In this document: positions 16,740 through 35,398 of the stretch, one piece after another | Numbering within the stretch: position 1 is the first letter of the stretch | Layout: each line of letters opens with the position of its first letter | NCBI GenBank assembly: GCA_031261425.1 | Contig: JAISJR010000017.1 | Location: 1-64,000, forward strand | Direction of reading: 5' to 3' | DNA from: Planctomycetota bacterium | GTDB lineage: Bacteria > Planctomycetota > SZUA-567 | Length of the DNA stretch: 64,000 nt | The notes under the pieces: generated by a model | What the model was told of the DNA's origin: nothing | What the model saw: only the letters and a program-made list of their open reading frames with translations | Database searches by the model: none | Position numbers and translations under genes: made by a program

Positions 16740-16767
16740 TTGACAATTACCGCCGCCGGCGTATTAT
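16740..16767 (+). promoter_or_regulatory. Sigma-70-type promoter of the nitrogenase-like cluster
   Basis: TTGACA (16740-16745) and TATTAT (16762-16767) are separated by 16 bases, about 85 bases before the NifH-like start. This is the best promoter match I see in the window and no equally good one follows inside the cluster. No sigma-54 (NifA-type) element is obvious. Confidence 0.6.
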
Positions 16768-16850
16768 CATATTTATTACTAAATCGGTGATAACTGTTTG
16801 CGACTTGCCGCGGACAGCGGCGTCTTAATCAAAAACAAAAGGAATTTTCG

Positions 16851-17723
16851 ATGTCCAAAGAAATCAAACAAATCGCCATCTACGGCAAGGGCGGAATCGG
16901 CAAGTCAACCACCTCGTCGAACATCAGCGCCGCGCTGGCAAAATTGGGTTACAAAGTTATGCAGGTCGGTTGCGACCCGAAAAGCGATTCGACCAACACT
17001 TTGCGCGGCGGCACTTACATTCCGACCGTGTTGGACACGCTCCGCGCCAAAGGCAAAGTTACCGCCGACGAAATTATTTTTACCGGCGCCGGCGGCGTGT
17101 ATTGCGTCGAAGCCGGCGGTCCGGCGCCGGGCGTCGGTTGCGCCGGTCGCGGGATTATCACCGCCGTCGAGCAACTGAAACAATTGCGGGTGTTTGAAAA
17201 TCTCGACATCGACATCGTGCTTTACGACGTGTTGGGCGACGTGGTCTGCGGCGGGTTCGCGGTGCCGATTCGCGAAGGCATCGCCAAGCACGTGTTCACC
17301 GTAACTTCGTCGGATTTTATGGCGATTTACGCGGCGAATAATCTTTTCGCCGGCATTAAAAAATACAGTAGCACCGGCGGCGCGTTGCTCGGCGGCATTA
17401 TCGCCAACTCGATTAACGCGCCGTATAGCCGCGCGATTGTCGATGATTTCGCCGCGCGCACGCAAACGCAAATCGTCGAATACGTCCCGCGCTCGGTAAC
17501 GGTTACGCAGGCGGAATTGCAAGGCAAAACCGTCATCGAAGCCGCGCCGGACTCGGCGCAAGCGCAGGTCTATTTGGAACTTGCCGAAAAAATCGCCAAG
17601 CACACGGACTCCAAAACGCCGAATCCGATGTCGGTCGAGGAATTGCACCAGTGGGCGGGTTCGTGGGCGGAAAAATTGTTGAAAATCGAAACCGGCGAAG
17701 TCGCGCCGAAAGACGGGATTTAG
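16851..17723 (+). CDS. NifH-like iron protein (nitrogenase-like reductase component)
   Basis: This 290-residue ATP-driven electron donor of the NifH/BchL/CfbC family has Walker [10 protein letters not shown] at 12-20 and CDPKSDST at 41-48. The two cysteines that hold the 4Fe-4S cluster between subunits are Cys97 (GVGCAGRG) and Cys133 ([14 protein letters not shown]). Arg100, the regulatory ADP-ribosylation position in some NifH, is conserved. It would be a homodimer passing electrons to the D/K-like protein. The Shine-Dalgarno AAAGGA and a promoter lie upstream. The absence of nifB/E/N and the divergent partners argue against true nitrogen fixation. It leads the 18.5-kb cluster. Confidence 0.93.
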
Positions 17724-17813
17724 CAGTGAGCAGTGGGCAGTGAGCAGTAATTACGCCGCCTGCCGGAATTAGAATCGCGCTAAAAAAGGACTAAAGTTCA
17801 GCCGCTGAAATCC

Positions 17814-17844
17814 GTAAATGAAAGACAACACTTCTTTCATTTAC
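17814..17844 (+). promoter_or_regulatory. Hairpin before the unknown gene
   Basis: GTAAATGAAAG and CTTTCATTTAC form a perfect 11-bp stem with a 9-base loop, ending 8 bases before the GGAGGG of the next gene. It could protect or block the message, or partly terminate transcription after the NifH-like gene. Confidence 0.6.
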
Positions 17845-17865
17845 ACTTTTCAGGGAGGGCTAACC

Positions 17866-19584
17866 ATGTCCACGGCTGTCGGCTTTAATACCGGTTTTAG
17901 CAGTAATTTGTGGGGCGGATTTAGCCCGTTGGCGAATGGCGGCGTCGCGATTCGCGGTGATGAGAAATCCGCCGGTATCGCCGGTAAAATTAGCGCGGGT
18001 GGCGATAGCGTTGAAATATCAGCCGCCGCCTACGCCGCGTTTGCGAATTTTTCGGCGACCGCGGGCGCGATTAGCGCCGTTGATTTGAGCACTAAAGAGG
18101 GTCGCGCCGAACAGGCGAAAAATTACGACGCGCTTCTTGCCGGATTGCGCGACGAGTATGACGAACCGGAAGCGATGCGCCGCTTCGACGAAATTATGCG
18201 GGCGGACGGATATGAATTGCGGATTGAACGCGGGATTTCCGGCGGCATCAATGCTTGCGACGTTGAATACATAGGCGGGATAAATTTCGCGTCCGGTAGC
18301 GCTCAATTTACGGAGAGCCAAATACCGCAAATAAGCGCGGCGTTAAGCCCAACCAAACCGGCTACAAATATGAGTGCCTATTCGTCAATTACGGCGGCGG
18401 AAATAAACGGACGCGAGGAATACTGGGCGGAGACCTCCGTGGCATATAACGTTACGGCGTCGGCAAAAATGTCTGAAACTTTTGCGGCGTGGCGCGACCG
18501 TCCGGTTGCCGACGACCTGCAAGCGCAGATTAATTTCGACCTGTCGGAATATATGGATAAATTCCGCGCTACCGGCGATGCGTCAACGCTCGACAGCGCG
18601 GCAGGCGTAATCAGCAATCGAATGAACAACGGTCAAATCGCGGCGGTGGGGGTCAGCGCGGATTTGGCGACGGTCGCGAAAACGGTGTTGGAGAAAGCCG
18701 GAGTAACGCTTGCCGCCGGTGAAAATCTAATGTTCAGTTTTGTCGAAGACGGCGCCGGCAAAGGAAACTTTCGTTTGCACGCGCTCATCACCTCGACGGA
18801 CGGCAATCGTTTTAGCGCGGAAATTGACGATGTGTTGAAAAATGACGCCGATATTTTTCAGGCGTTTCAAGCGAAAAGCGACCGGATTGCATTTGCCGAT
18901 TTGTCGGAAATCGGCAGTTATTCCGACGGACCGCGGTTTGTTTCCTACGGTCAAAGTCGCAAATTCATTTTTTCGGCGGACGAACCGTCAACGTTGGTAA
19001 TCGGCGACCAATTGTCTGTCGATAGCGAGGGTTACACCTATCAGAAGAAAATATCCGACCGGTTTATTACGACTGCCGATTATTTTTCCATCAGCGCTAG
19101 CCGTTCGTTAGATGAAAGTTTTGCAGGGGGAAAATTTATTCCTAATTTGTCGCAAACGTCGCGAGAAGATGAGTTGGCGCGTAGAATTATTGACGCGACA
19201 AAATCCGGCGGCGTAGTTAATGCCACAATAAGCGAACAGGACTGGTATGACTGGAACCTAAAAGAGGCGACGGAATACGCATCGACGCACTCGCGGGAAT
19301 TTCAAGATTATGCGTCGTATGCGGAAGCGAGTGGATTGTCGAAAGAAGCGGAAAATAAAGTTCAAGGCGAGAAAAAAACGGCGAATAAATTGATGGCGAG
19401 CGTTGACCAAACGCCGACGGACTATCGTGAACTTTACGGCGAAATCAAAAATATGTGGTTGGCGGAATGGAAAAAATCGGTGTCGTCTGAGATGTTATTA
19501 AATATACCGCTAGCGTCGCAACGAGAGTTTTACCAGATAAGTTATTTGTCGGCAATAGAAAATGCGCAGATACGCGCACAATAA
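17866..19584 (+). CDS. Unknown protein between the H- and D-like genes
   Basis: This 572-residue protein starts at the ATG with GGAGGG seven bases upstream; an earlier in-frame ATG at 17818 lies inside the hairpin. There is no signal peptide, membrane segment or cysteine motif. The N-terminus is rich in Gly, Ser and Asn, with GGDSVEISAAAYAAFANF, a pattern that loosely recalls N-termini of flagellar or exported proteins; this is weak. The C-terminal third is charged and probably helical. Its codon use (more AT-ending) and composition differ from the reductase genes. I recognise no family; it may be an inserted gene or a lineage-specific accessory. Confidence 0.75.
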   Translation: MSTAVGFNTGFSSNLWGGFSPLANGGVAIRGDEKSAGIAGKISAGGDSVEISAAAYAAFANFSATAGAISAVDLSTKEGRAEQAKNYDALLAGLRDEYDEPEAMRRFDEIMRADGYELRIERGISGGINACDVEYIGGINFASGSAQFTESQIPQISAALSPTKPATNMSAYSSITAAEINGREEYWAETSVAYNVTASAKMSETFAAWRDRPVADDLQAQINFDLSEYMDKFRATGDASTLDSAAGVISNRMNNGQIAAVGVSADLATVAKTVLEKAGVTLAAGENLMFSFVEDGAGKGNFRLHALITSTDGNRFSAEIDDVLKNDADIFQAFQAKSDRIAFADLSEIGSYSDGPRFVSYGQSRKFIFSADEPSTLVIGDQLSVDSEGYTYQKKISDRFITTADYFSISASRSLDESFAGGKFIPNLSQTSREDELARRIIDATKSGGVVNATISEQDWYDWNLKEATEYASTHSREFQDYASYAEASGLSKEAENKVQGEKKTANKLMASVDQTPTDYRELYGEIKNMWLAEWKKSVSSEMLLNIPLASQREFYQISYLSAIENAQIRAQ

Positions 19585-19645: not shown

Positions 19646-21130
19646 ATGAGCAACCTTGATTTAACTGTGCCGCCGCGCCGCGAAGACCGGCATCACGAGA
19701 CCTGTTTGGCTTACGGCGGGACGGTCTGCGGTTCGCGCCGCCCCGGCAAACGGTGCGCGTTAATGGCGGACGCCGAGCGCGGTTTCACGCAAGGGTCAAT
19801 CTGCTCGTTGCTTCCGGGTTTGGGGATTATGTGCAGTTTGCCGGACACCGCCGTTTTACTGCACGGCGGCGTCGGTTGCGGCTCGTCCATTCACGGGATT
19901 AACGGCAACGTGCGCGCCGGTCATAACGCGCGGCGCGGTAAGCCGTTCGACGCGCTGTGGTTTTCGACCGCGCTCAACGAAGTTGACGTTATTTCCGGCG
20001 GCGACGCGAAACTTGAACGCGCCATCAAAGAAATCGACGCGCTCTATCAGCCGCAAGTGATTGTCGTGGTCGCCAGTTGCTTGCCCGGCATTATCGGCGA
20101 CGACATCGACTCCGTCGCGGCGCAGGTGCAACCGGCGGTCAACGCGCGGCTTTTGCCGGTGCATTGCGAGGGCTTTAAGACCCGTTTTATGGCGACCGCC
20201 TACGACGTGATTTATCACGCCATCGGGCGAAATTTATTGCCCGCGCCGGACGAGAAAATTATCCGCGAAGAAAAAACGATTAACGTGATGAACGTCGGCT
20301 CGATGGGACGCATCGACGAAATTGAAATTGAGCGTCTGTTTGAAGAATTGGGGCTGACGGCGAATTTTTATCCGGTGTTCGCGCGTCCCGAAAGTTTTTC
20401 GCGCGCGACGCGGGCGGCGCTGTCGATTAGCACCTGCCCGACGCACGACGACTATTTTCTGACGCATTTGGAGGAAAAATTCGGCGTGCCGTATTTGATT
20501 CGCAATATGCCGATCGGCATCGCCAACACGAGCGCGTGGCTCCGCGATTTGGCGGAAAAATTAAAACTGCCGCAGGTCGAAAAATTGATTTCCGCGGAAG
20601 AAGCCGAACTGCGCGCGGCGTTGCAAGAATTTTTGCCGCTGTTTAAGGACAAGCGCGTGTTTTTATCGGCGGGCGAATACCGGTCGCTCGCGACCGCGTC
20701 GCTGTTGAAAGAACTCGGCTTCAAAATCGCCGGCATCCGCTCGTTCCATTACGATAATTTCGCCGAGGTTGAGTTGGAAAAATTGCGCGCCGGCGGCGAG
20801 GATTTCACGTGGAACGTCGCCAACGTTCAGCCGTTCGAGGAAGCGAATTTACTGAAAAAAGTCAAGCCGGATTTATTTTTGGGGCATTGGCACGGCAATC
20901 AAACCGCCGGTCGGCTCGGTATTCCGACGCACGTGATTTACAACACCGGTTACGGCTACATCGGTTATCGCGGCGTGTATGACTTGGCGCGGCGGCTACA
21001 TCGCAAGTTGAGCAACACCGCGTTCACCGACCGCCTCGGAAAATACGGACGTTTGCCGTATCGCGACAGTTGGTATCAAGAAGAACCGTTTGCGTATATC
21101 CGCTCGAAAAACGCGGCAAATGCCGAGTAA
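19646..21130 (+). CDS. NifD/NifE-like catalytic subunit of a nitrogenase-like reductase
   Basis: This 494-residue oxidoreductase/nitrogenase component 1 family protein has three P-cluster cysteines aligning as Cys53, Cys78 (GGVGCGSS, 25 residues apart as in NifD) and Cys145 (ASCLPGIIGDD). Cys264, in STCPTHDDYFLTHLEEKFGVPY, aligns without gaps with the NifD cofactor ligand Cys275 region. In the region of NifD His442, the stretch after GIP (GIPTHVIYNTG) places Tyr432 where His would be. Extra cysteines at 20, 28 and 37 form an N-terminal group not found in NifD. I infer a catalytic subunit with a metal-sulfur cofactor acting on something other than N2. Substrate unknown. Confidence 0.9.
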   Translation: MSNLDLTVPPRREDRHHETCLAYGGTVCGSRRPGKRCALMADAERGFTQGSICSLLPGLGIMCSLPDTAVLLHGGVGCGSSIHGINGNVRAGHNARRGKPFDALWFSTALNEVDVISGGDAKLERAIKEIDALYQPQVIVVVASCLPGIIGDDIDSVAAQVQPAVNARLLPVHCEGFKTRFMATAYDVIYHAIGRNLLPAPDEKIIREEKTINVMNVGSMGRIDEIEIERLFEELGLTANFYPVFARPESFSRATRAALSISTCPTHDDYFLTHLEEKFGVPYLIRNMPIGIANTSAWLRDLAEKLKLPQVEKLISAEEAELRAALQEFLPLFKDKRVFLSAGEYRSLATASLLKELGFKIAGIRSFHYDNFAEVELEKLRAGGEDFTWNVANVQPFEEANLLKKVKPDLFLGHWHGNQTAGRLGIPTHVIYNTGYGYIGYRGVYDLARRLHRKLSNTAFTDRLGKYGRLPYRDSWYQEEPFAYIRSKNAANAE

Positions 21131-21203: not shown

Positions 21204-22586
21204 ATGACCTCGATATTAGACGAACCGTTGCCGCCGCTCGTTTCCGCGCTTGAACGTCCGCGGTGGAGTTGCGCGCTCGGCGGGGCGCTCGCCGCGGTCG
21301 GCGCGTTGCCGCGCACGATTCCGGTGATGCACGCCGGACCCGGTTGCGCGTCGAATTTTACGTGGATGCAAAACGGTTCGGGCGGCTTGGCGACCGGCGG
21401 TTATTGTAGCGGTCTGGCGATGCCGGGCTCGAATTTGCAGGACAGCGAAGTGGTTTTCGGCGGACACGAGCGGTTGGGCGAGGAACTCGCCAACGCCATC
21501 AAAATTATGGACGGCGATTTGTATTTCGTCCTGACCGGTTGCGTGCCGGAAGTTATCGGCGACGACGTGGACGCGGTGGTGGCGGAATACGCCAACGACG
21601 GCAAGCCGGTGGTTTTCGCCTCGACCGCCGGATTCAAGGGCAACTCTTATTTCGGCTACGAACAAGTGCTGAAAACGTTGTTTAAGTCGGTGGTGGAAAA
21701 AGGCGCGCCGAAGCAAAACGACTTGGTCAACGTGTGGGGCGTGCCGCCGACGCAGGATGTTTTTTGGCGCGGCAATTTGCAGGGCGTCGCGCGATTGTTG
21801 CAATTACTCGGTTTTCGCGCGAATTATTTTTTCGGCTCCGGCGCGGATTTAGACCTCATTAAAAAATCCGCCGGCGCGCGGCTGAACATCGTTTTGTCCG
21901 ACCTCTACGGCATCGAGGCGGCGGAATTATTTAAGGAACTGCACGGCGTTGACTTTATTTCCACGCCTCTGCCGTTCGGCGCGGCGGCGACGGAGAAATT
22001 TTTGCGGACGGTCGGCGCGGCGTTGAAAGTAAGCGGCGAAGCGGTGGAGAAAATTATCGACGCGGAAGGGCGTCGGCATTACGAGTATCTCGAAGGATTG
22101 CTTGAAGTTTTCAACGATATGGAAGCGCAACGTTACGCGATTGTCATCGGCGACGCGAATTACGCTTTCGCGACGGCGGATTTTCTCGCCGAGGATTTGG
22201 GCTTTTTACCGGATTTAATCGCCGTTACCGACGACCTGACGGCAGAGAAGCGCGAAATTCTGCTTACCAAGCGGAGCGCGCGGGTCGCGGGGCGCTACGG
22301 CGAAAAATCGCAAGTGGTGTTCATCGCCGACGGGGCGCATTTAACGGAAGCGGTGGACGACACGTGGCGGGCGGAAAGTTGGAAAAAATATCATCCGGCG
22401 AAACGTCCGGCGATTGTGGTCGGCAGTTCGCTTGACCGCGGTCTGGCGGCGGCGCTCGGCGCGGCGCATTTGACCGTGGCGTTTCCGGTGTCGAACCGCG
22501 CGGTGCTAAACCGCGGCTACACCGGCTACGACGGCGGCTTAACCCTCGCCGAAGACGTGATTAGTTCGTTTATCGCCGCGCGGTAA
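21204..22586 (+). CDS. NifK/NifN-like beta subunit of a nitrogenase-like reductase
   Basis: This 460-residue protein starts at the ATG with AAAGGAAC upstream; the open frame reaches back to 21090 but would overlap the D-like gene. P-cluster cysteines are Cys23 (WSCALGGA), Cys48 (HAGPGCASN) and Cys113 (TGCVPEVIGDD), with the 25-residue spacing of NifK. It lacks the longer NifK N-terminal region. With the D-like protein it should form an alpha2-beta2 tetramer fed by the H-like protein. The 74-base gap before it contains a short direct repeat (AAGCGGTGGC twice). The stop is followed directly by GTTGAAA heptamers and then the palindromic repeat. Confidence 0.9.
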   Translation: MTSILDEPLPPLVSALERPRWSCALGGALAAVGALPRTIPVMHAGPGCASNFTWMQNGSGGLATGGYCSGLAMPGSNLQDSEVVFGGHERLGEELANAIKIMDGDLYFVLTGCVPEVIGDDVDAVVAEYANDGKPVVFASTAGFKGNSYFGYEQVLKTLFKSVVEKGAPKQNDLVNVWGVPPTQDVFWRGNLQGVARLLQLLGFRANYFFGSGADLDLIKKSAGARLNIVLSDLYGIEAAELFKELHGVDFISTPLPFGAAATEKFLRTVGAALKVSGEAVEKIIDAEGRRHYEYLEGLLEVFNDMEAQRYAIVIGDANYAFATADFLAEDLGFLPDLIAVTDDLTAEKREILLTKRSARVAGRYGEKSQVVFIADGAHLTEAVDDTWRAESWKKYHPAKRPAIVVGSSLDRGLAAALGAAHLTVAFPVSNRAVLNRGYTGYDGGLTLAEDVISSFIAAR

Positions 22587-23007: not shown

Positions 23008-24021
23008 ATGAACCTATTTATCACAAAAACTATGCGTTATTTGGCAACGGCATGGGCGGCGGTCAAGGAACTGCGCCGCGTCAAACTGTGGTGGGTGCCA
23101 ATGACGATAGGAATAGCGATTCTGCTTGAGTTGCTGTTGTCCAACCACGACAGTCAGCCGGCGACGAAATATGCGTATTACCGCTATTTGGTGTTTATCG
23201 CGCTGGCGTTCTTTTTGACGCTCGCCGTCGGCGCGAAATTTTTTCCGCGTTGGCGGGAAAAACTCCTGCACATTTCCGCCTTTTACACCGCCGTATTTCT
23301 CGCGCTGAATATCTATCACTTGGCGACGCAAAAATTCGGCTTGCTCCCCGCGCTGTTTTTCCCCTCGCCGGGGCGGATTCTCGAAGCGTTGGTCGTTGAC
23401 TTCCGTTATTTGATTGTCGATTGCCTCGGCTCGTCGGCAAAGTTGTTGGCGTGGGGCTATTTCACCGGCGCGATTGCCGGCTTCTTCACCGGCATCGCCG
23501 TCGGCTTCAACAAAACCGCCGCTTACTGGGTCAATCCGCTGACCCGCATTATCGGACCGATTCCGCCGACCGCGTGGATACCGATAGTGTTGGTGGCGTT
23601 TCCGACCACGTTTTCCGGCGGCGCGTTTTTAATCGCGCTGGCGGTGTGGTTTCCGGCGGCGGTGATGACCGGTAGCGGCATCGCCAACGTGCCGAACGCT
23701 TATTTTGAGGTGTCGAGCACGCTCGGCGCCAGCCGTTGGCGGCAAATTTTTTACGTCGGGATTCCCGCCGCGATGCCGTCGATTTTCATCGGGCTGTTCA
23801 CCGGCACCTGCTCGTCGTTTATTACGCTGATGACCGCCGAAATGCTCGGCGTGAAAAACGGCATCGGCTGGTATGTCAATTGGCAACGCGAAATGTTGTC
23901 CTACGCCAACGTCTATGCCGGACTAATCATCATCGCGATTACCTTTTATTTGCTGATTACCTTGCTTTTCCGCTTGCGCGATGTCGTGCTGGTCTGGCAA
24001 AAAGGAGTAATCAAATGGTAG
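23008..24021 (+). CDS. ABC transporter permease, NitT/TauT type (system 1)
   Basis: This 337-residue inner-membrane protein has three extra N-terminal helices (about residues 25-45, 58-78 and 88-108) before the standard SsuC/TauC-type permease core. The cytoplasmic ATPase-contact loop is visible as EVSSTLGASRWRQIFYVGIPAAMP. A GGGGAAAAG site lies about ten bases before the ATG. It overlaps the ATPase gene (ATGGTAG), so the two are coupled. Relatives import nitrate, taurine, sulfonates, thiamine precursors and similar small molecules; the substrate here is unknown, but proximity suggests the compound used by the reductase or the methyltransferases. Confidence 0.88.
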   Translation: MNLFITKTMRYLATAWAAVKELRRVKLWWVPMTIGIAILLELLLSNHDSQPATKYAYYRYLVFIALAFFLTLAVGAKFFPRWREKLLHISAFYTAVFLALNIYHLATQKFGLLPALFFPSPGRILEALVVDFRYLIVDCLGSSAKLLAWGYFTGAIAGFFTGIAVGFNKTAAYWVNPLTRIIGPIPPTAWIPIVLVAFPTTFSGGAFLIALAVWFPAAVMTGSGIANVPNAYFEVSSTLGASRWRQIFYVGIPAAMPSIFIGLFTGTCSSFITLMTAEMLGVKNGIGWYVNWQREMLSYANVYAGLIIIAITFYLLITLLFRLRDVVLVWQKGVIKW

Positions 24022-24821
24022 CCCCCCAAACGGGCGCCGCGACTATCGGCGCCATCAACATTCGCGGCGTGAAAAAGACCTTCACGCATCAGGACGGCTC
24101 AATCATCGAGGCGCTGTCGAACGTCGATTTGTCCGTCGCCGCCGGCGAGTTTATCACGCTGATTGGTCCGTCCGGTTGCGGCAAGTCAACGTTGCTCCGC
24201 GCGATTGCCGGACTGCATCCGGTTGACGCCGGCGAATTGACGTTGGACGGCGAGCCCATCACCGGACCGGCGGCGGAGCGCGGACTGGTTTTTCAAGACC
24301 CGTTGCTTTTCCCGTGGCTGAACATTCACGACAACGTGGCGTTCGGCTTAAAGGCGCGGCATTTGTATCGCGAGCACAAGGCGGAAGTCGGACAGTTTCT
24401 GAAATTGGTCGGCTTGGAAACGTTCGGCAAATCGTATCCGCACCAACTCTCCGGCGGGATGCAACAACGCGCGGCGCTGGCGCGGGCGCTGGTCAATCAG
24501 CCGAGCGTGTTGTTGCTCGACGAACCGCTCGGCGCGCTCGACGCTTTTACGCGAATGAATATGCAGGACGAAATCATTCGGATTTGGCAGGAGCGTAAAA
24601 CCACGATGATTATGGTTACGCACGACGTTGACGAAGCGGTGTATCTCGCCGACCGCGTGGTGGTGATGTGTCCGCGCCCGGCGCGGATAGAAGAAATCAT
24701 CAGCGTTAAACGGGAGCGTCCCCGCGCTCGCAGTCATCCCGACTTTTTACAGTTGCGCGGGAAACTGCTGAAAATCCTCGACTTCGGCGGACAGGAACGC
24801 GAACCGGAATACCGGATTTAG
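24015..24821 (+). CDS. ABC transporter ATPase, NitT/TauT type (system 1)
   Basis: This 268-residue ATPase has Walker A GPSGCGKST, a Q-loop in GLVFQDPLLFPWLN, signature LSGGMQQR, Walker B VLLLDEP and the switch His in MVTHDVDEA. The start is the ATG overlapping the permease stop, with AAGGAG ten bases upstream. It powers the permease at 23008, and the binding protein at 24981 probably completes the system. Confidence 0.93.
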   Translation: MVAPQTGAATIGAINIRGVKKTFTHQDGSIIEALSNVDLSVAAGEFITLIGPSGCGKSTLLRAIAGLHPVDAGELTLDGEPITGPAAERGLVFQDPLLFPWLNIHDNVAFGLKARHLYREHKAEVGQFLKLVGLETFGKSYPHQLSGGMQQRAALARALVNQPSVLLLDEPLGALDAFTRMNMQDEIIRIWQERKTTMIMVTHDVDEAVYLADRVVVMCPRPARIEEIISVKRERPRARSHPDFLQLRGKLLKILDFGGQEREPEYRI

Positions 24822-24980: not shown

Positions 24981-25958
24981 ATGCGTGCCAAAATTGTCAT
25001 CGCGTTACTCGCGTTCGCGGTAACGTTGCCGGCGCTCGCCGCCGACGCGCCGCTGAAAAAAATCCGCGTCGGTTTCACCGGCGGATTGTGTGAAGGTCCC
25101 GTGCAAATCGCGCACGAAAAGGGCTTTTACGCGGAAGAAGGTCTCGACGCCGAACTCATCAAACTCCAAGCCGGCGCGAATTTTGAGGCGATTGCCGCGG
25201 ACAAAATCGACGCCAGTTTCGGGTTGCTTGCCACCTTGCTTCAGCCGCTCTCGAACGGGTTGACGATTAAAATCACCACCGGTTTGCACACCGGTTGCGA
25301 CAAGTTGCTGGTGAAACCGGACAGCGGCATCAAAACGCTCACCGACCTGAAAGGCAAAAGAATCGGCGTGCCGAGTTTGACTAGTAGTCCGATTATGTTC
25401 ACGCGGCGCGGTCTCGCGGCGGCGGGCGTGAAAGTCGGCGACAAGGACGCCGAAGTCGAATTTGTCGTCTTCAGTAACGCGGAATTGCCGCTCGCTTTGT
25501 CAAAAGGCGCGATTGACGCGCTGGCGGCGAACGACCCCGTGGCGTCGGTGGCGGCGAAAGCGAACAACTTGACCGTCCTGCTCGATTCGGCGCGCGACGA
25601 GCCGTATAAGAGTCAATACTGCTGTGCCGGTTACGTTTCCGCCAAATTGTATAAAGAAGACCCGGCGGCGGCGCTGGCTTACACCCGCGCCGTGCAGAAA
25701 GCGAGCGCGTGGATTCAGGAACATCCCGACGAGACCACGCAAATTCAGGTGGACAAAAAATACGTCGCGGGCGACCCGGAATTTAACGCGACGGTGCTGA
25801 AAACGTTCAAATACATCCCGTCGGCGAAAGGCGCCTACGACGCCTTCAGCGTCATCGCCAACGAACTGAAAGACATCGGGATTCTGCGCGCCGACCTCGA
25901 CGCGGATAAACTGCGCGACAACAGCGTGGTGCTGTTGCCGGGCGTGGTGTATGAATAA
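24981..25958 (+). CDS. ABC transporter substrate-binding protein, NMT1/SsuA type (system 1)
   Basis: This 325-residue periplasmic protein has a signal peptide of about 21 residues (LLAFAVTLPALAA). The mature start KIRVGFTGGLCEGPVQIAHE and the block GFYAEEGLDAELIKL are typical of the NMT1/SsuA family. LTDLKGKRIGVPSL and NDPVASVAAKA mark later ligand-pocket loops. Cys pairs (GLCEG, YCCAG) are unusual and might bind ligand or metal, or form a disulfide. AAGGAG precedes the start. It belongs with the permease and ATPase just upstream. Confidence 0.88.
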   Translation: MRAKIVIALLAFAVTLPALAADAPLKKIRVGFTGGLCEGPVQIAHEKGFYAEEGLDAELIKLQAGANFEAIAADKIDASFGLLATLLQPLSNGLTIKITTGLHTGCDKLLVKPDSGIKTLTDLKGKRIGVPSLTSSPIMFTRRGLAAAGVKVGDKDAEVEFVVFSNAELPLALSKGAIDALAANDPVASVAAKANNLTVLLDSARDEPYKSQYCCAGYVSAKLYKEDPAAALAYTRAVQKASAWIQEHPDETTQIQVDKKYVAGDPEFNATVLKTFKYIPSAKGAYDAFSVIANELKDIGILRADLDADKLRDNSVVLLPGVVYE

Positions 25959-27386: not shown

Positions 27387-28184
27387 ATGACCACCTTGCG
27401 CCTTGCAGACATCACTTTCGCCTACGGCGACCGCGTTATTCTCGAACATTTGAGTTTGACCGTCGCCGACGGCGAATTTTTGGTGGTGTTGGGCGCCAGC
27501 GGCGGCGGCAAAACCACGCTGTTGCGGTTAATCGCCGGTTTAGCCGCGCCGACGACGGGGCAGATTTTTTTTGCCGATGAAGAAGTGCGCGCGCCGTCGC
27601 CGCAACGCGGCATCGTGTTTCAGGATTACGCGCTGTTCCCGTGGTATTCGTTGCGCGACAACGTGGCGCTGGCGGTGGCGAAAAGCGAGCCGCGCTTGTC
27701 GCGGCGCGAGCGGCGCGAACGCGCCGCCGAGTATTTGCGAGCGGTCGGCTTGGGCGACGCGGCGGCGAAATATCCGCACGAATTGTCCGGCGGGATGCGG
27801 CAACGCGGGGCGCTCGCCCGCACGCTCGCGCTCGGCAGTCCGCTGTTGTTGTTGGACGAGCCGTTCGGCGCGTTGGACCCGCACAACCGCGCCCGTTTGC
27901 AAAATTTATTGTTGGAAATTTGGCGCGCCGCGACTCCGCGCCGCACCGTGATTTTTGTTACGCACGATATTGACGAAGCGTTGTTGCTCGGCGACCGAAT
28001 TATCGCGCTCGGCTCCAACCCCGGGCGCATCATCGGGGAAATAAAAATTGACGCGCCGCGCCCGCGCTCGCGCGAAGACATAATTACCGCCGAAAATTTC
28101 CGGTCATATCGCGCGGCAATCCAAGCGTGCTATTGCCGGCGCGACGACGACGAAGCCGTCGATGGCGACGGCGGCGGAATTTGA
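27387..28184 (+). CDS. ABC transporter ATPase, NitT/TauT type (system 2)
   Basis: This 265-residue ATPase has Walker A GASGGGKTT, Q-loop GIVFQDYALFPWYS, signature LSGGMRQR, Walker B LLLLDEP and switch His FVTHDIDEA. The start follows TTGGAGAACCG. The C-terminus is unusual: ACYCRRDDDEAVDGDGGGI, an acidic, glycine-rich tail. It pairs with the permease 54 bases downstream and the binding protein upstream. Confidence 0.92.
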   Translation: MTTLRLADITFAYGDRVILEHLSLTVADGEFLVVLGASGGGKTTLLRLIAGLAAPTTGQIFFADEEVRAPSPQRGIVFQDYALFPWYSLRDNVALAVAKSEPRLSRRERRERAAEYLRAVGLGDAAAKYPHELSGGMRQRGALARTLALGSPLLLLDEPFGALDPHNRARLQNLLLEIWRAATPRRTVIFVTHDIDEALLLGDRIIALGSNPGRIIGEIKIDAPRPRSREDIITAENFRSYRAAIQACYCRRDDDEAVDGDGGGI

Positions 28185-28238: not shown

Positions 28239-28979
28239 ATGCCGCATCGCCTTTCCGGTCTGTTGCTCTTTCCGCTCCTTGTCGGCGTCTGGGCGTTCGT
28301 CGCGGAAATTTTACCGCCGCAGAGCCGTTATCTTTTTCCGGCGCCGCTGGCGGTGGCGCGGGCGTTGTGGGAATCGCTCGGCGTGTTGTGGCAAGGCACG
28401 GTCGCGTCGATGATGATTTTAATTCCGGGTTACATTTTAGCGGTGCTTGCCGCCGTATTGTTCGGGATTCCGGTCGGCGCCACGACTTGGGCGCGGCATT
28501 TTTTTGCGCCGTTGATGCGGGTCGCCGCGCCGGTGCCGCCGACGGTGTATGTGCCTTACGCCATCGCGTTGTTGCCGACGTTTCGCGCGTCCGCGATTTT
28601 CGTGGTTTTTATCGGCGCGTTCTGGCCCGTGTTTCTCGGCGCGGTGTCCGGCGCCGCGACCGTGCCGGAGCGCCACCGCGACAACGCCCGCGTGCTTGGT
28701 TTCGGGCGCTGGGAATACTGGCGGCGCGTGGCTTTTCACGCCGCTCTGCCGGCGATTTTCAACGGGATGGGCGTCGGAATGGCGATGGCGTTTATACTGC
28801 TCACCGTCGCCGAATTGTTCGGCGCCAACGTCGGCTTGGGGCATTTCGTCCAATACTACGCCGACTTCGCCGACTACCCGCGGATGGTCGCCGGCATCAT
28901 TTACACCGGCGCGGTTACGTTTTCCGCGATGACGCTCCTCGCCCAATTGCAAAAACGGATGCTGTTTTGGAACATTTAG
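28239..28979 (+). CDS. ABC transporter permease, NitT/TauT type (system 2)
   Basis: This 246-residue permease has the standard six-helix SsuC/TauC core, without the N-terminal extension of permease 1. The ATPase-contact loop is RHRDNARVLGFGRWEYWRRV followed by AFHAALPAIFNGMG. The gap before it holds TTTAAGATTTTAAGAATCTTAAAA, another short inverted repeat. It completes the second importer in the order binding protein, ATPase, permease, the mirror of system 1. Confidence 0.88.
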   Translation: MPHRLSGLLLFPLLVGVWAFVAEILPPQSRYLFPAPLAVARALWESLGVLWQGTVASMMILIPGYILAVLAAVLFGIPVGATTWARHFFAPLMRVAAPVPPTVYVPYAIALLPTFRASAIFVVFIGAFWPVFLGAVSGAATVPERHRDNARVLGFGRWEYWRRVAFHAALPAIFNGMGVGMAMAFILLTVAELFGANVGLGHFVQYYADFADYPRMVAGIIYTGAVTFSAMTLLAQLQKRMLFWNI

Positions 28980-29122: not shown

Positions 29123-30196
29123 ATGCCCACCCACGACCTAATGACTCCCCGCGAACGTTTGGCGGCGATAAAAGCCGGACGCCCGTATGACCGTCTGCGT
29201 TGCGTGCCGTCGATTAGCAACACCACGGCGCGGGTTCTCGGCTGTAAGGTTTCCGAGTTGCGCCGCGACGGCGAGACGCTGGCGCGGGCGACGATTGCGA
29301 CCTACCGGCGTTTCCGCTACGACACGGTGCGGGTGTTCACCGACCTTTACGTTCAGCCGGAGGCGATGGGGGCGAAAGTGCGCGTCCCGCTCGATGAAAC
29401 CGCGCATCTCGACGCGCCGGCGATTAACACGGTCGCCGAAATCGCGGCGCTCACGCCGCATAATCCGCACACCGACGGACCTCTGCCGGCGCTGTTGCAG
29501 GCGACGCGCTTGGTGTATGAGGCGCTCAACGACGAGGTGCCGGTAACTTGCGCGGTGGAGGGACCGTTCACTTTGGCGGCGTTGTTGGTCGGCGCGGAAA
29601 CCATTTCGCGCTGGATGTTTAAGGAACCGGCGGCGGCGCATCGATTGCTCGAAATCGCGTATCGGGCGTGTAGCCGTTTAGCGGCGGCGATTATCGCAAC
29701 CGGCGCGGCGCCGAGTTTGACCGACGCGATGAGTTCCAGCACGGTGATTAGCCCGAAGCATTTTCGGGAATTTGCTTTGCCGTATCTCAAACGATTGGTC
29801 GGCGACATTCGCGAGCGCTCCGGCGCCGCGCCCGGACTGCATATTTGCGGCAAGACCGCGCCGATTTGGGAAGGAATGGTCGAAACCGGCGCGAGTTGTT
29901 TGTCGATTGACAATCTCGCGGATTTGCGCGCGGCGAAAAAATTGGTCGGCGACCGCGTTTGTTTGATGGGCAACATTCCGCCGTCGGAGGTTTTATTGCG
30001 CGGCGCGCCCGCCGACGTGCGCCGCGCCGCGCTGAAATGCATCCGCGAAGCGGGCGATAATCCGGGCGGTTTTATTTTAGCCAGCGGCTGTTCTCTGCCG
30101 ACCGAAACGCCGTTCGCCAACATCGACGCGATGATGGACGCCGCGCGAGAAGTCGGCTATCCGGTCGCCGAGGGGCTGGCGAAAATTACAAATTAA
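29123..30196 (+). CDS. MtaA/CmuA-type methyltransferase (UroD fold) 1
   Basis: This 357-residue cytoplasmic protein belongs to the uroporphyrinogen-decarboxylase superfamily branch that moves methyl groups to or from corrinoid proteins. The zinc site of that branch is complete: His240 and Cys242 (GLHICGKT) and Cys323 (LASGCSLPTETP). The zinc would activate a thiol or thiol-like substrate. Other family marks are AVEGPFTLAALLVG and ALPYLKRLVGDI. GGAGTC precedes the start. The last codons (K-I-T-N-stop) lie in an AT-rich repeat. Three paralogues share one corrinoid protein here; which one meets the substrate and which the methyl acceptor cannot be told. Confidence 0.85.
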   Translation: MPTHDLMTPRERLAAIKAGRPYDRLRCVPSISNTTARVLGCKVSELRRDGETLARATIATYRRFRYDTVRVFTDLYVQPEAMGAKVRVPLDETAHLDAPAINTVAEIAALTPHNPHTDGPLPALLQATRLVYEALNDEVPVTCAVEGPFTLAALLVGAETISRWMFKEPAAAHRLLEIAYRACSRLAAAIIATGAAPSLTDAMSSSTVISPKHFREFALPYLKRLVGDIRERSGAAPGLHICGKTAPIWEGMVETGASCLSIDNLADLRAAKKLVGDRVCLMGNIPPSEVLLRGAPADVRRAALKCIREAGDNPGGFILASGCSLPTETPFANIDAMMDAAREVGYPVAEGLAKITN

Positions 30197-30310: not shown

Positions 30311-30323
30311 GTGGACAAAAAAA

Positions 30324-31346
30324 ATGACTAACAAAGAAATCATTCTGTCCGCGATTGCGGGCAAACCGGCGGAGCGCAACGCCGCGACGTTGATGTCGGC
30401 GGGGTTGTGGTCGTTTGCGCGGCGCGGCTTGAAATTGCAGGACGCGCTCTATCAGCCCGAACTCGCCGCCGACGTGCTGGCTTCGACCATCGAAGAAATT
30501 CAGGGCGATATGGTCTATGCCGCGACCGGCTATTACCAACTTCTGCCCCGCGCGCTCGGCGCGAAAATCAAATTCCGTCCGAACGGCGTCCCCGACCTCG
30601 ACGTGCCGGTTTTCGCCGACCCGTCGCAACTCGACCCGTCGCGGCTCGACCGGATTGCCGGCGACGAAGGGCTGAATTTTTTATGGGAAACCGCCGGACG
30701 GTTGGCGAAGCGGGTCGGGCAAAAATTTTTGGTCGCCTGCGGCTCGTTTGTGGTGCTGACCGTCGGCGGACAAATCGTCAGCGTCGAGCAATTGATGCGG
30801 GCGCTCCGCCGCGACGCGCCGGCGGCGAACGCGGTGTTGGATTACGCGCTTGAAGCGTGCTGGGGCTACCTCGAACCGTTTTTGCGGAGCGGCTCCGAAT
30901 TGGTGTCGCTCGCCGACCCGACCGCCAGCGGCGATATGATTTCGCGCCGGTATTTCGCGGACTTTATCGCGCCGCGCCACAAAATTTTGGTTGACCGGAT
31001 TCACGCGCGCGGCGCCAAAGTGATGTTGCATATTTGCGGCGATGTCAACGACCGGATTAACTTGATGCGCGACTCCGGCGTGGACGTGCTGTCGCTCGAT
31101 TTCAAAGTTGACCTCGCGCCGGTCCGCGAGCAATTGCGCGGACGCGCGGCGTTCGCGGGCAATCTCGACCCGGTGCGGGTGATGTTGCAGGCAACGCCGG
31201 ACGAGATTCGCCGTTTGGGGCGGGAGAGCATTAAAAAATACGGCGGCGACCATAATTATATTTTGATGCCGGGTTGCGATATTCCCGGCACGGTGCCGCT
31301 CGAAAACGTCAAGGCGTTGCTCGCGGCGGCGCGAGAAACCAATTAA
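30324..31346 (+). CDS. MtaA/CmuA-type methyltransferase (UroD fold) 2
   Basis: This 340-residue protein is of the same superfamily, with zinc ligands His236 and Cys238 (MLHICGD) and Cys318 (LMPGCDI). The start is the ATG after a run of A; no clear Shine-Dalgarno is present, and the open frame extends 20 codons upstream into repeat DNA. LADPTASGDMISRRYFADF is the family block before the zinc site. It shares little detailed sequence with copy 1, so it probably has another substrate or acceptor. It ends T-N-stop inside a repeat and lies directly before the corrinoid protein gene. Confidence 0.85.
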   Translation: MTNKEIILSAIAGKPAERNAATLMSAGLWSFARRGLKLQDALYQPELAADVLASTIEEIQGDMVYAATGYYQLLPRALGAKIKFRPNGVPDLDVPVFADPSQLDPSRLDRIAGDEGLNFLWETAGRLAKRVGQKFLVACGSFVVLTVGGQIVSVEQLMRALRRDAPAANAVLDYALEACWGYLEPFLRSGSELVSLADPTASGDMISRRYFADFIAPRHKILVDRIHARGAKVMLHICGDVNDRINLMRDSGVDVLSLDFKVDLAPVREQLRGRAAFAGNLDPVRVMLQATPDEIRRLGRESIKKYGGDHNYILMPGCDIPGTVPLENVKALLAAARETN

Positions 31347-31509: not shown

Positions 31510-32181
31510 ATGCCACGGGAAAAATCAGCCGTCTATCGGGACTTGTCCGACGCGGTGTTGAATTTGGAAGAGGAAAAGGCGGCGGCGACGGCGCAAGAAG
31601 TCGTCGCCGCCGGTTACGACGCCTACGAAGCCATCGACCAAGGATTGGCGGACGGGATGGCGCGCGCCGGCAAATTATTTGAGGAAGACGAGTATTTCGT
31701 ACCGGAGTTGTTGATTGCCGCCGACGCGATGTATGCCGGCTTGGGCGTGTTGCGCCCGCACATCAAAATTGACCAAAGCCGCGCGCCGGGGCGCGTGGTG
31801 ATTGGCGTGATTGAGGGCGACACGCACGACATCGGCAAAAATCTCGTCAAAATTATTTTGGAGGCGAAGGGCTTTGAAACGCGCGACTTGGGACGCGACA
31901 TTCCGCCGGCGGCGTTCGCGCAGGCGGCGCGGGAATTTAACGCGGAAATTATCGCCATTTCGACGCTGATGACGACGACGATGGCGGGAATGGAGAAAGT
32001 CATCTCGCTGTTGAAAGACGGCGGCGACCGCGACAAATTCCGCGTAATGGTTGGCGGCGCGCCCATCTCGGCGACTTTCGCCGAAAAAATCGGCGCCGAC
32101 GGCTACGCGGCAAACGCCGTCGAAGCCGGCGAACTCGCCGTGCGGCTGGTTAGCGAACTGCGTGGAGGAATTAGGGATTAG
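31510..32181 (+). CDS. Corrinoid (B12-binding) methyl-carrier protein
   Basis: This 223-residue protein is of the MtaC/MtbC/MttC type. Residues 1-88 are the helical cap domain (GLADGMARAGKLFEEDEYFVPELL). Residues 95-220 are the B12-binding Rossmann domain with the signature DTHDIG at 104-109, where His106 would be the lower cobalt ligand, plus ISTLMTTTM and GGAPIS. It would carry a methyl group on cobalt between the UroD-type methyltransferases that flank it. CGGAGA lies eleven bases before the ATG. It is the only corrinoid protein in the window. Confidence 0.94.
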   Translation: MPREKSAVYRDLSDAVLNLEEEKAAATAQEVVAAGYDAYEAIDQGLADGMARAGKLFEEDEYFVPELLIAADAMYAGLGVLRPHIKIDQSRAPGRVVIGVIEGDTHDIGKNLVKIILEAKGFETRDLGRDIPPAAFAQAAREFNAEIIAISTLMTTTMAGMEKVISLLKDGGDRDKFRVMVGGAPISATFAEKIGADGYAANAVEAGELAVRLVSELRGGIRD

Positions 32182-32528: not shown

Positions 32529-33578
32529 ATGCCTGCCCCTTCCGAAAAAATCACGCCGAAGTCGCGCCTGCGCGCGGTGTTGCGGCGCGAAAAAGTTGAC
32601 CGTCCGCCGGTTTGTTGTCCGGGCGGAATGATGAACGCGGCGATTGTGGAAATCGTCGGCAATTGCGCCGCGACGTTGCCCGCCGCGCATTTTGACGCCG
32701 AAAAAATGGCGACGCTGTCGCTCGCCGTCGCCGAAAAAACCGGCTTTGAAAATATCGCCTTGCCGTTTTGTATGACCGTCGAGCCGGAGGCGCTCGGCAG
32801 TCGCATCGATCCGGGCAGTTTGGCGTGCGAACCGAAAGTCGCCGCCGAAGCGTATCAGTCGTGCGCCGACGTGCCGACGTGGAACGTCGCCGAGTTGTTG
32901 ACGCGCGGGCGCGTGCCGTTAATTCTCGACGCGACGCGGCGGCTTGCCGCGCCCCACGGCGATTTGCCGGTGATTGTCAGCATTTCGGGACCCGTCAGCA
33001 CGGCGGCGTCCGTCGTGGACCCGCCGGCGTATTTCAAGGAATTGCGCAAAAAACCGGCGGAAGCGCGGCGGGTAACCGGACAAGTTACGGCGTTTTTGGC
33101 GGCGTATGCCCGCGCCGCGGTGCAGGCGGGAGCGGACGTGATTGCGATTGGCGACCCCAGCGCGACCGGCGATATTTTGGGTCCGAAATTATTCGCCGAG
33201 TTTGCCGTGCCGTATTTGCGCGAATTGGTCGAGGCGATTCACGCCGCCGGCGCGCCCGCGATGGTGCATATTTGCGGCAACACCGACAACTGCCGCCAGC
33301 ACTGGGTCGCCATCGGCGCGGACGCGGTGAGCGTGGACGCGATGATTAACTTGGCGAAATTGAAAAACGAATTTCCGGCGGCGTTCGCGACGATGGGCAA
33401 TCTCAGCACGTTTTTGTTGGAATTCAGCGACGCCGAAAAAATCGCGGCGCGGGCGCGGCAGTTGGTCGCCGACGGCATCGACATCATCGCCCCCGCCTGC
33501 GGTTTAAGCACCTCCACCAAATTAGCCGCCATCCGCGCGATGACCGACGCGGTGCGGGAGAGCGCAGTGAACAATTAA
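32529..33578 (+). CDS. MtaA/CmuA-type methyltransferase (UroD fold) 3
   Basis: This 349-residue paralogue has the zinc triad His247 and Cys249 (MVHICGN) and Cys324 (IAPACGLST). The N-terminal RLRAVLRREKVDRPPVCCPGG and IGDPSATGDILGPKLFAEF match the MtaA-like branch best of the three. In methanogens MtaA moves methyl from the corrinoid protein to coenzyme M; in bacteria lacking that coenzyme the acceptor could be tetrahydrofolate or another thiol, which is inference. The start ATG has no good ribosome binding site. It ends V-N-N-stop in a repeat. Confidence 0.86.
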   Translation: MPAPSEKITPKSRLRAVLRREKVDRPPVCCPGGMMNAAIVEIVGNCAATLPAAHFDAEKMATLSLAVAEKTGFENIALPFCMTVEPEALGSRIDPGSLACEPKVAAEAYQSCADVPTWNVAELLTRGRVPLILDATRRLAAPHGDLPVIVSISGPVSTAASVVDPPAYFKELRKKPAEARRVTGQVTAFLAAYARAAVQAGADVIAIGDPSATGDILGPKLFAEFAVPYLRELVEAIHAAGAPAMVHICGNTDNCRQHWVAIGADAVSVDAMINLAKLKNEFPAAFATMGNLSTFLLEFSDAEKIAARARQLVADGIDIIAPACGLSTSTKLAAIRAMTDAVRESAVNN

Positions 33579-33712
33579 CAATTAACAATTAAAAATTAAA
33601 AATTAAAAATGATGGAGTTGGATGGTAAAAATTCGCTTCGCGAGCGCTTGCGGACTTGCCCATAAAAACTCCGCCATTTTTAATTTTTAATTTGTAATTT
33701 TTAATTGCTCTT
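33574..33712. repeat. AT-rich heptamer inverted repeat
   Basis: Units CAATTAA/AAATTAA on the left mirror TTTTTAAT/TTTGTAAT on the right around AATTCGCTTCGCGAGCGCTTGCGG. Confidence 0.8.
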
Positions 33713-33742
33713 TTTTAACGGTTAGCGAACGGTCTAGCAAAA

Positions 33743-35398
33743 ATGCAAATCCACTTCCTCCCCGACAACCGCACGGTCGAACTGTCCGCCGGCGAGTCGC
33801 TTCTCACGGCGGCGCGGCGCGCCGGCGTCGAATTAGCCGCGCCCTGCAACGGCGCGGGCGTGTGCGGCAAATGTTTGGTGCGCGTCGCGGCGGGTCAGTC
33901 CGCGCCGCTCGGCAAAAGCCGGCATTTCGCGCCCGCCGGCAGTTTGCTTGCCTGCGAAACGACCGCCGTGAGCGATTTAACCGTCGAAATTCCGCGAAAA
34001 AAAGAAACCGGTTTGCAAATCCACAATCACGGCGCGACGATTGAGGTCGAACTCGCGCCGGCAATCCGCAAACATTACGACGGCGCGAACACGCAAATTT
34101 TCGCGGGCGCCGAACTTCTCGGCACGGAAGCCGGCGACACGACCGCGCGCGTTTTCGGCGCGGTGATTGACATCGGCACGACGACGCTGGCGGTCGGGAT
34201 TATTGATTTACTCACCGGCGAAGAAGCGGCGGGCGCGACCGGTCTAAATCCGCAAACGAGTTACGCGCAGGACGTGTTGGGACGAATTCATTTCGCGAGC
34301 GGCGACGGCGGCTTAGCCATTTTACAGAGCGCGGTCGTCGCGGCGTTGAACGCGCTTATCGGCGAGGCGGCAGACGCGGCAAAAATCGACACGGCGCAAA
34401 TTTATGAAGCGGTCGTCAGCGGCAATACTTGTATGTTGCAGTTGGCGCTCGGACTCGACCCCGCGCCGCTCGGTCGGCATCCTTACGCGCCGTTTTTCGC
34501 CGGTAACGAAACGCGCCCCGCCGCCGGTTTGCGGATTGCGCCGTTCGGGCAAATTTACGCGCCGCCGAATATCGCCGGACATATCGGCGCGGATATTGTC
34601 AGCGGCATCGTCGCCACCGATTTGGCGGCGCGGCGCGGCACGACGTTGTTTGTCGATATCGGCACGAACGGCGAAATGGTCGTCGCGCAAGACGGCAAAA
34701 TGGTCGGCGCTTCGACCGCCGCCGGACCGGCGTTCGAGGGAATGAATATCGCCTGCGGGATGCGGGCGGCGGCGGGCGCGATTGAGCGCGTCAACATCGA
34801 GGGGGAAAATTTTCAACTCCGCGTGATTGGCGACGCGCCGCCGGTCGGCATTTGCGGAAGCGGACTGATGGATTTAGTCGGCGAACTGGCGCGTTGCGGC
34901 GTCATTGACGGCGGCGGACGATTAGGCGGCAATCGCGACCCGAACGCCTACGCGGCGAAAATTTTGGCGGAGCGCGGACGGCGCGTGGACGGCAAGGCGC
35001 GGCTGACGGTCGCGGACGCGGTTTATTTATCGCAAAAGGATTTGCGGCAGGTGCAATTGGCGAAAGGGGCGATTCGCGCCGGCGTCGATTTATTATTGAA
35101 AAACGCGGGCGTGGCGGCGGCGGCGGTGGACGAGGTGATTATCGCCGGTTCGTTCGGGTATCATTTGCGCGCCGAGAGTTTGCTCAATTTGGGCTTACTG
35201 CCGCGCGAATTGGCGGGAAAAATAAGTTTTGCCGGCAACACCTCGAAAAGCGGGGCGCGACTGTTTTTATTAAATCACGCCGAACGCGCCCGCGCGGCGG
35301 CGTTAGCCCGCGCCGTCCGCGCCGTCAATTTAGCCGAAGACGAAAGTTTCCAAACCGTCTTTATCGCGGCGATGGCGTTTCCGGCGGCGAGAGAATAG
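33743..35398 (+). CDS. RamA-type corrinoid-activating ferredoxin/ASKHA ATPase
   Basis: This 551-residue protein begins with a [2Fe-2S] ferredoxin domain: Cys35, Cys41, Cys44 (CNGAGVCGKC) and Cys71 (LACET). A linker to about residue 140 is followed by the ASKHA-fold ATPase domain (VIDIGTTTLAVGI; TLFVDIGTNGEMVV; IAGSFGYHLRAE). Proteins of this type use ATP to reduce inactive Co(II) corrinoid back to Co(I) on methyl-carrier proteins. It fits as the repair enzyme for the corrinoid protein at 31510. It closes the cluster and no convincing ribosome binding site is seen. Confidence 0.92.
   Translation: MQIHFLPDNRTVELSAGESLLTAARRAGVELAAPCNGAGVCGKCLVRVAAGQSAPLGKSRHFAPAGSLLACETTAVSDLTVEIPRKKETGLQIHNHGATIEVELAPAIRKHYDGANTQIFAGAELLGTEAGDTTARVFGAVIDIGTTTLAVGIIDLLTGEEAAGATGLNPQTSYAQDVLGRIHFASGDGGLAILQSAVVAALNALIGEAADAAKIDTAQIYEAVVSGNTCMLQLALGLDPAPLGRHPYAPFFAGNETRPAAGLRIAPFGQIYAPPNIAGHIGADIVSGIVATDLAARRGTTLFVDIGTNGEMVVAQDGKMVGASTAAGPAFEGMNIACGMRAAAGAIERVNIEGENFQLRVIGDAPPVGICGSGLMDLVGELARCGVIDGGGRLGGNRDPNAYAAKILAERGRRVDGKARLTVADAVYLSQKDLRQVQLAKGAIRAGVDLLLKNAGVAAAAVDEVIIAGSFGYHLRAESLLNLGLLPRELAGKISFAGNTSKSGARLFLLNHAERARAAALARAVRAVNLAEDESFQTVFIAAMAFPAARE

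What the first reader, a model, noticed from the sequence alone, without database searches (positions are those of the whole stretch)
16740..35398. Nitrogenase-like reductase joined with corrinoid methyl-transfer genes and two importers
One run of plus-strand genes contains H-, D- and K-like nitrogenase homologues, two NitT/TauT importers, three MtaA/CmuA-type methyltransferases, one corrinoid carrier and its RamA-type activator. Each family is seen directly. Known nitrogenase-like enzymes include protochlorophyllide and chlorophyllide reductases, the F430 enzyme CfbCD and the methylthio-alkane reductase Mar. A link with three UroD-type methyltransferases and a dedicated corrinoid protein in one locus is not a layout I know. 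I infer uptake of a small methylated compound, reductive bond cleavage, and capture of the methyl group on cobalt.
Basis: partly seen in the sequence, partly recalled or inferred. Interest (0 to 1): 0.88.

Follow-up and report, generated by a model that had tools for sequence, protein, structure and literature searches.

The report
Nitrogenase-like reductase with corrinoid methyltransfer genes
This gut planctomycete carries a gene set that probably imports a small sulfur-containing compound, splits it with a nitrogenase-like enzyme and moves the methyl group onto a vitamin-B12 protein; the combination was first described in 2023, but this reductase is a separate, untested branch beside the one known enzyme.

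Summary
Fifteen plus-strand genes (16851-35398) encode H, D and K nitrogenase homologues, two SsuA/NitT-type importers, three MtaA-like methyltransferases (Mlps), one corrinoid protein and a RACo-type activase, plus one unmentioned lineage-specific ORF. The core meets the testable published criteria of a "type 1 mlp gene cluster"; such clusters beside MarHDK-like (group IV-A) genes were already reported (Kountz & Balskus, PMC10418091), so the layout is not new. Added here: D is not methylthio-alkane reductase (Mar) proper. Its clade lies outside the Mar clade (AU p = 0.0003), keeps all cluster ligands (C53, C78, C145, C264, H414) but lacks Mar's Arg hallmark and has changed pocket residues; Sporomusa carries both enzymes. 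Among 80 relatives chosen by D alone, 26 of 51 loci with enough flank carry corrinoid protein plus Mlp (six phyla), 41 a NitT/TauT importer; 19 of 22 relatives of MlpB lie directly upstream of D. The genome has a NifB homologue but no nitrogenase and no SelD. Best reading: anaerobic organosulfur scavenging, C-S cleavage on a P-cluster/[Fe8S9C]-type enzyme followed by corrinoid demethylation, sulfur captured by CysK/MetY. Substrate and order of steps are inferred.

The parts
16740..16767 (+). possible promoter TTGACA-16-TATTAT upstream of H
   Evidence: 11 of 12 consensus bases, best site in the region; consensus match only
16851..17723 (+). H: NifH-type reductase (290 aa), closest solved relative MarH of R. 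rubrum
   Evidence: PF00142 E 5e-100; 475 bits to 9fmg_D against 282 for the best NifH; cluster Cys97 and Cys133 present
17818..19584 (+). 588-aa ORF of unknown function between H and D; lineage-specific, probably not part of the pathway
   Evidence: no Pfam/NCBIfam match; relatives only in own genome, G001 and G009 among 21 genomes; H and D adjacent without it in relatives
19646..21130 (+). D: catalytic subunit, sister clade to MarD
   Evidence: PF00148 E 3e-80; best PDB 9fmg_A by sequence and fold, TMq 0.85; C53, C78, C145, C264, H368, H414 invariant in 31 aligned proteins; tree, AU test
21204..22586 (+). K: partner subunit of D
   Evidence: PF00148 E 1.6e-63; best PDB MarK, 260 bits; P-cluster type Cys23, Cys48, Cys113
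23008..24021 (+). importer 1 permease (NitT/TauT type)
   Evidence: PF00528 E 2.6e-18; orthologues (60-72%) directly after K in many relatives
24015..24821 (+). importer 1 ATPase
   Evidence: PF00005 E 2.4e-34; best NCBIfam SaoA/TauB-like, below cut-offs
24981..25958 (+). importer 1 substrate-binding protein
   Evidence: SsuA subfamily TIGR01728, 109 bits, below cut-off 163.5
26183..27244 (+). importer 2 substrate-binding protein
   Evidence: TIGR01728 144 bits, below cut-off 163.5; best PDB SsuA 2x26 E 1e-13
27387..28184 (+). importer 2 ATPase
   Evidence: PF00005 E 3e-30
28239..28979 (+). importer 2 permease
   Evidence: PF00528 E 1.8e-16; ntrB/TauC-like
29123..30196 (+). MlpA: MtaA-like methyltransferase, first in the core (position of Mlp1)
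   Evidence: PF01208 E 1e-86; Zn ligands HIC and C; clade of 9 rows, 100*
30324..31346 (+). MlpB: MtaA-like methyltransferase, second in the core (position of Mlp2)
   Evidence: PF01208 E 3e-52; HIC and C; in a 23-row clade (98*) of which 19 of 22 other members lie directly upstream of D; long branch
31510..32181 (+). corrinoid carrier protein
   Evidence: PF02310 and PF02607; GDTHDIG corrinoid motif read in sequence
32529..33578 (+). MlpC: MtaA-like methyltransferase (position of Mlp3)
   Evidence: PF01208 E 4e-74; NF004889 359 bits over cut-off 244; HIC and C; 20-row clade 100*
33743..35398 (+). RACo-type reductive activase of the corrinoid protein with N-terminal 2Fe-2S domain
   Evidence: PF14574, PF17651, PF00111

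Best explanation
The cluster is an anaerobic organosulfur-scavenging module: a type 1 mlp gene cluster joined to a group IV-A nitrogenase-like reductase outside the Mar clade. Importers 1 and 2 bring in a small organosulfur anion (inferred). H passes electrons at the cost of ATP to D/K, which carries a P-cluster and a NifB-derived [Fe8S9C]-type cluster (ligands present; clusters inferred) and cleaves a C-S bond of the substrate (inferred from Mar). The methylated thiol product, or a methylated thiol substrate, gives its methyl group through a His-Cys-Cys zinc methyltransferase, most likely MlpB, to the corrinoid protein, which RACo keeps in the Co(I) state; another Mlp hands the methyl on to an acceptor thiol (inferred). 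The freed sulfide, or methanethiol, enters amino acids through CysK or MetY, both present in the genome.
For: Families and order. Nearest characterised enzyme for H, D and K is Mar, a C-S reductase. All metal ligands kept. A NifB homologue sits elsewhere in a genome with no other PF00148 protein. Conserved linkage in six phyla in loci chosen on D alone: 26 of 51 with corrinoid protein plus Mlp, 24 of 51 with all type 1 MGC parts, 41 of 51 with NitT/TauT binding protein or permease. MlpB-type gene directly upstream of D in 19 of 22 relatives. All three Mlps have the His-Cys-Cys ligands said to mark S/Se methyltransferases (PMC10418091). A CysK gene lies within about 10 kb of D in 28 of 80 relatives; a representative passes the cysK cut-off, and the window's genome has CysK and MetY above cut-off. 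Binding proteins are nearest the aliphatic-sulfonate family SsuA.
Against: No substrate is identified; both binding proteins score below the SsuA subfamily cut-off. About half of the D/K loci with adequate flank lack corrinoid genes nearby, so D/K can serve without them, and in close relative G014 the corrinoid protein and D/K are on different contigs. The pocket differs from Mar, so C-S cleavage is extrapolated. No H4folate:corrinoid methyltransferase other than MetH exists in the genome, so the final methyl acceptor is open. Co-transcription is untested.
Confidence: 0.5

Rival explanations
1. Two parallel sulfur-salvage modules sit side by side: importer plus reductase on one organosulfur compound, and the Mlp/corrinoid set on another; they share regulation and end products but not a pathway.
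For: Deltaproteobacterial, Desulfarculales and Candidatus Adiutrix loci carry D-K-importer 1 without corrinoid genes. Kountz & Balskus offer a parallel pathway as an alternative (PMC10418091).
Against: MlpB-type genes lie directly upstream of D in Bacillota, Spirochaetota, Synergistota and Planctomycetota, which suggests sequential action.
Confidence: 0.25
2. H/D/K is simply methylthio-alkane reductase (Mar) for methionine salvage from MTA-derived methylthio compounds.
For: Mar is the nearest solved relative of all three subunits and of the predicted fold of D; MetY is in the genome.
Against: Placing window D with the Mar clade is rejected (AU p = 0.00034); Arg428 hallmark missing and H194/W195/F199 replaced by F/M/Y; Sporomusa KB1 carries both a 79% MarD and a window-type D.
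Confidence: 0.12
3. H/D/K is a sulfonate reductase of the isethionate reductase (Isr) kind fed by the SsuA-type importers.
For: Comparable gene content: nitrogenase-like HDK plus SsuCAB importer (PMC11423573); binding proteins nearest SsuA.
Against: IsrD keeps one of three P-cluster Cys and lacks the cofactor Cys (PMC11423573); window D has all of them. The maturase here is NifB-like, IsrB is not. A sulfonate without a methyl group leaves the Mlps unexplained.
Confidence: 0.07
4. The cluster recycles methyl-selenium compounds, as most type 1 mlp clusters are thought to do.
For: ClMlp2 methylates selenide in vitro (PMC10418091) and sdm genes support dimethylselenide use (PMC11097638).
Against: No SelD in this 92.7% complete genome: best match 42.5 bits, cut-off 125. 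Some relatives with window-type D do have SelD, so selenium use is not excluded for them.
Confidence: 0.05

Closest known systems
Type 1 mlp gene clusters, non-selenium group with MarHDK-like genes (Kountz & Balskus, PMC10418091)
   Same: Same core genes and, for the core, the same order as in C. ljungdahlii (Mlp, Mlp, corrinoid protein, Mlp, activase); His-Cys-Cys Mlps; MarHDK-like group IV-A genes alongside; no dedicated H4folate methyltransferase.
   Different: Two SsuA/NitT-type importers between reductase and core, not stressed in the text read; D clade shown here to lie outside Mar proper; host is a planctomycete MAG.
Methylthio-alkane reductase MarBHDK of R. rubrum (PDB 9fmg, 9d9u; PMC12552129)
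   Same: Subunit make-up, P-cluster and [Fe8S9C] ligands (including the loop I His), NifB-like maturase, fold.
   Different: D about 30% identical; Arg428 deleted; His194/Trp195/Phe199 replaced; separate clade; corrinoid genes and importers attached.
Isethionate reductase IsrBHDK with SsuCAB (PMC11423573)
   Same: Nitrogenase-like HDK working with a sulfonate-type ABC importer in sulfur assimilation.
   Different: IsrD lacks most cluster ligands that are present here; its maturase is not NifB-like; no corrinoid genes appear in the published induced-gene table of that locus.
Mo-nitrogenase NifHDK
   Same: Fold, Fe-protein, P-cluster cysteines.
   Different: No NifEN or any other PF00148 protein in the genome; the Gln191/His195 positions are not kept; the likely ligand His is in the Mar-type loop.

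Membership tests
[quoted passage not shown]
   three URO-D, one B12-binding, one RACo
Type 1 mlp gene cluster | same direction, no divergent gene between, gaps under 2 kb | tested here: met
   gaps 127-347 bases in the core, all plus strand
Type 1 mlp gene cluster | no tetrahydrofolate methyltransferase homologue within 20 kb | tested here: met
   PF00809 only at G000 C25 and C28, none on the window's contig C71
Type 1 mlp gene cluster | Mlps fall in the published Mlp2 and Mlp3 clades | not testable with these tools
   reference Mlp sequences not held; order and best NCBIfam match of MlpC agree
Type 1 mlp gene cluster | His-Cys-Cys zinc ligands in Mlps | tested here: met
   HIC plus C in all three
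Non-selenium type 1 cluster | genome lacks selenium traits | tested here: met
   SelD 42.5 bits against cut-off 125; SelA/B/C not searched; genome 92.7% complete
Mar (methylthio-alkane reductase) | ligands of P-cluster and [Fe8S9C] in D and K | tested here: met
   D C53/C78/C145/C264/H414; K C23/C48/C113
Mar (methylthio-alkane reductase) | Arg428-His429 pair on loop I, proposed hallmark | tested here: not met
   Arg position deleted in the window and the members of its clade listed; His kept
Mar (methylthio-alkane reductase) | D in the clade of R. rubrum MarD | tested here: not met
   AU p 0.00034 for holding window D with the Mar clade
Mar (methylthio-alkane reductase) | reduces methylthio-alkanes to methanethiol and hydrocarbon | not testable with these tools
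   needs purified enzyme
Isr (isethionate reductase) | D with one P-cluster Cys and no cofactor Cys | tested here: not met
   all four Cys present; published description
Nitrogenase | NifEN present and Gln191/His195 around the cofactor | tested here: not met
   only two PF00148 proteins in the genome; M and Y at the aligned positions

The most novel reading that the evidence does not exclude
The D/K clade is a new nitrogenase-like reductase family with its own substrate, fed by a dedicated SsuA-type importer, whose product is passed directly to a cognate methyltransferase (MlpB) that loads the methyl group onto the corrinoid protein: a coupling of [Fe8S9C]-type reduction and B12 methyl transfer in one pathway.
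Probability: 0.33. Interest if true: 0.75.

Novelty: new variant of a known kind. Interest (0 to 1): 0.5.

Why it matters
Only a few nitrogenase-like enzymes have a known reaction. A widespread sister clade of Mar, found here in six phyla (many of them gut and sediment anaerobes) with a ready-made importer and a cognate methyltransferase, gives specific substrates and partners to test, and would show how anaerobes recover sulfur from organic compounds. It may also bear on biological methane, ethylene or methanethiol release.

Tried and rejected
A viral-contig scan with K gave nothing. Plasmid tblastn with D returned mostly Nif and one 31% Chloroflexota record, so no Isr reference was found. 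Reference Mlp sequences (C. ljungdahlii) and IsrD were not obtainable, so Mlp1/2/3 clades and the exact distance to Isr are untested by tree. Rfam matches in the region are all below gathering score and mostly fall on intergenic repeats, so no riboswitch is claimed. Nitrogen fixation and selenium recycling were considered and judged unlikely. The 588-aa ORF was considered as a pathway part and set aside.
Full report
What is there. Between 16851 and 35398 fifteen genes run on the plus strand: H, an unknown 588-aa ORF, D, K, importer 1 (permease, ATPase, binding protein), importer 2 (binding protein, ATPase, permease), MlpA, MlpB, corrinoid protein, MlpC and a RACo-type activase. The best promoter-like site of the region, 11 of 12 consensus bases, lies at 16740 just upstream of H. 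The window is contig C71 of a 2.62 Mb, 92.7% complete draft genome; its two same-family matches with 74% identical D correspond to termite-gut-type Planctomycetota MAG records (the link of handle to record rests on matching contig lengths and positions).

The reductase. H is closest to R. rubrum MarH (475 bits, against 282 for the best NifH), and D and K are closest to MarD and MarK (215 and 260 bits) among all solved structures. An AlphaFold model of D (pLDDT 89) matches the Mar catalytic subunit best (TMq 0.85, 30% identity). [quoted passage not shown] The second shell differs: the Arg beside the loop I His, which the structure paper proposes as a hallmark of Mar, is deleted, and Mar His194, Trp195 and Phe199 are Phe, Met and Tyr. 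In a tree of 67 D proteins the window falls in a 45-row clade (SH-aLRT 92) outside the Mar clade (12 rows, 99*), and forcing it into the Mar clade is rejected (p-AU 0.00034). Sporomusa sp. KB1 has both a 79% MarD and a 57% window-type D. So it probably works like Mar in its metal chemistry but is not a member of Mar by the tests that could be made.

Cofactor supply. The genome has no PF00148 protein besides D and K yet carries a NifB homologue on contig C90, 301.6 bits to TIGR01290 (cut-off 343.65), without the NifX domain. NifB-like and NifX-like genes lie near D in 21 and 32 of 80 relatives. This fits a NifB-derived cluster in D; that cluster is inferred.

The methyl-transfer core. It meets the published gene-content criteria of a type 1 mlp gene cluster, including no pterin-binding methyltransferase on the contig, and has the gene order of the C. 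ljungdahlii cluster (PMC10418091). All Mlps carry the His-x-Cys and Cys ligands. SelD is absent above cut-off, which places it with the non-selenium group, the group in which that preprint already reported MarHDK-like group IV-A genes.

Conserved linkage. The 80 loci were picked with D only. Of 51 with at least 4 kb on both sides, 26 have corrinoid protein and Mlp, 24 have all core parts, and 41 have a NitT/TauT binding protein or permease, in Thermodesulfobacteriota, Myxococcota, Bacillota, Spirochaetota, Synergistota and Planctomycetota (in the Synergistota and Planctomycetaceae loci counted, no such binding protein or permease was found near D). Importer 1 orthologues follow K directly in many termite-gut deltaproteobacteria. 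MlpB belongs to a 23-row clade of which 19 of the 22 other members lie immediately upstream of D. MlpB of the window has a long branch, so its place within that clade is less sure. The loci are unevenly sampled and related to each other, so these counts are not independent events.

Function. A CysK gene occurs in 28 of 80 loci, and a representative passes the cysK cut-off. The window's genome has CysK (450 bits, cut-off 351) and MetY (569.5, cut-off 495.1), which can take up sulfide and, for MetY, probably methanethiol (family knowledge); it also has a MetH-like protein and one sulfite-reductase-like protein. Both binding proteins are nearest SsuA but under its cut-off. I therefore favour organosulfur scavenging: import, C-S cleavage, demethylation on the corrinoid protein, capture of the sulfur. 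Shown by sequence: families, ligands, clade, linkage. Inferred: clusters, substrate, reaction, order, methyl acceptor. The main rival is two parallel modules, since about half of the D/K loci with adequate flank lack corrinoid genes.

Novelty. The combination is known from one preprint without biochemistry on the reductase. The distinct D clade, the tie to MlpB and the dedicated importers are refinements I did not find in the papers read (supplements could not be opened). Hence a new variant of a known kind.

Noticed in passing
17818-19584: A 588-aa ORF without known family splits H from D; among 21 genomes searched, relatives occur only in the same genome, its genus-mate G001 and family member G009.
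   Followed up: partly
24824-24941, 25957-26074, 27238-27374, 28983-29099, 31340-31458, 33567-33719: Intergenic palindromes built of 7-base repeats (CAATTAA)n sit in six gaps of the cluster; the exact 19-mer occurs about 110 times per strand in the whole genome and about 160 in G001, so it is a dispersed element, not part of the system.
   Followed up: partly
22625-22936: A 60-base inverted repeat (85%) spans most of the gap between K and permease 1; weak Acido-Lenti-1 RNA similarity below gathering score.
   Followed up: no
L108, L161-L164 (Sporomusa sp. KB1): One genome carries 24 PF00148 proteins, including true Mar, window-type and other nitrogenase-like D/K pairs clustered within about 90 kb; a good place to compare specificities.
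   Followed up: partly
43928-62897: A type VI secretion gene set (TssF, TssG, ClpV-like ATPase, VgrG-like, IcmF, ImpA, VipA, VipB) fills the right part of the window.
   Followed up: no
L114, L115, L116 (G014, G011, G012): Relatives in the same family carry a second, more divergent D paralogue (about 37% to window D) with SsuA-type binding proteins nearby.
   Followed up: no
L091, L093, L095, L096, L098, L101: In Synergistaceae and Planctomycetaceae the reductase/corrinoid operon follows a glutamine-synthetase-like gene and MetI/MetQ-like importer genes (read from sequence, not tested by HMM).
   Followed up: no
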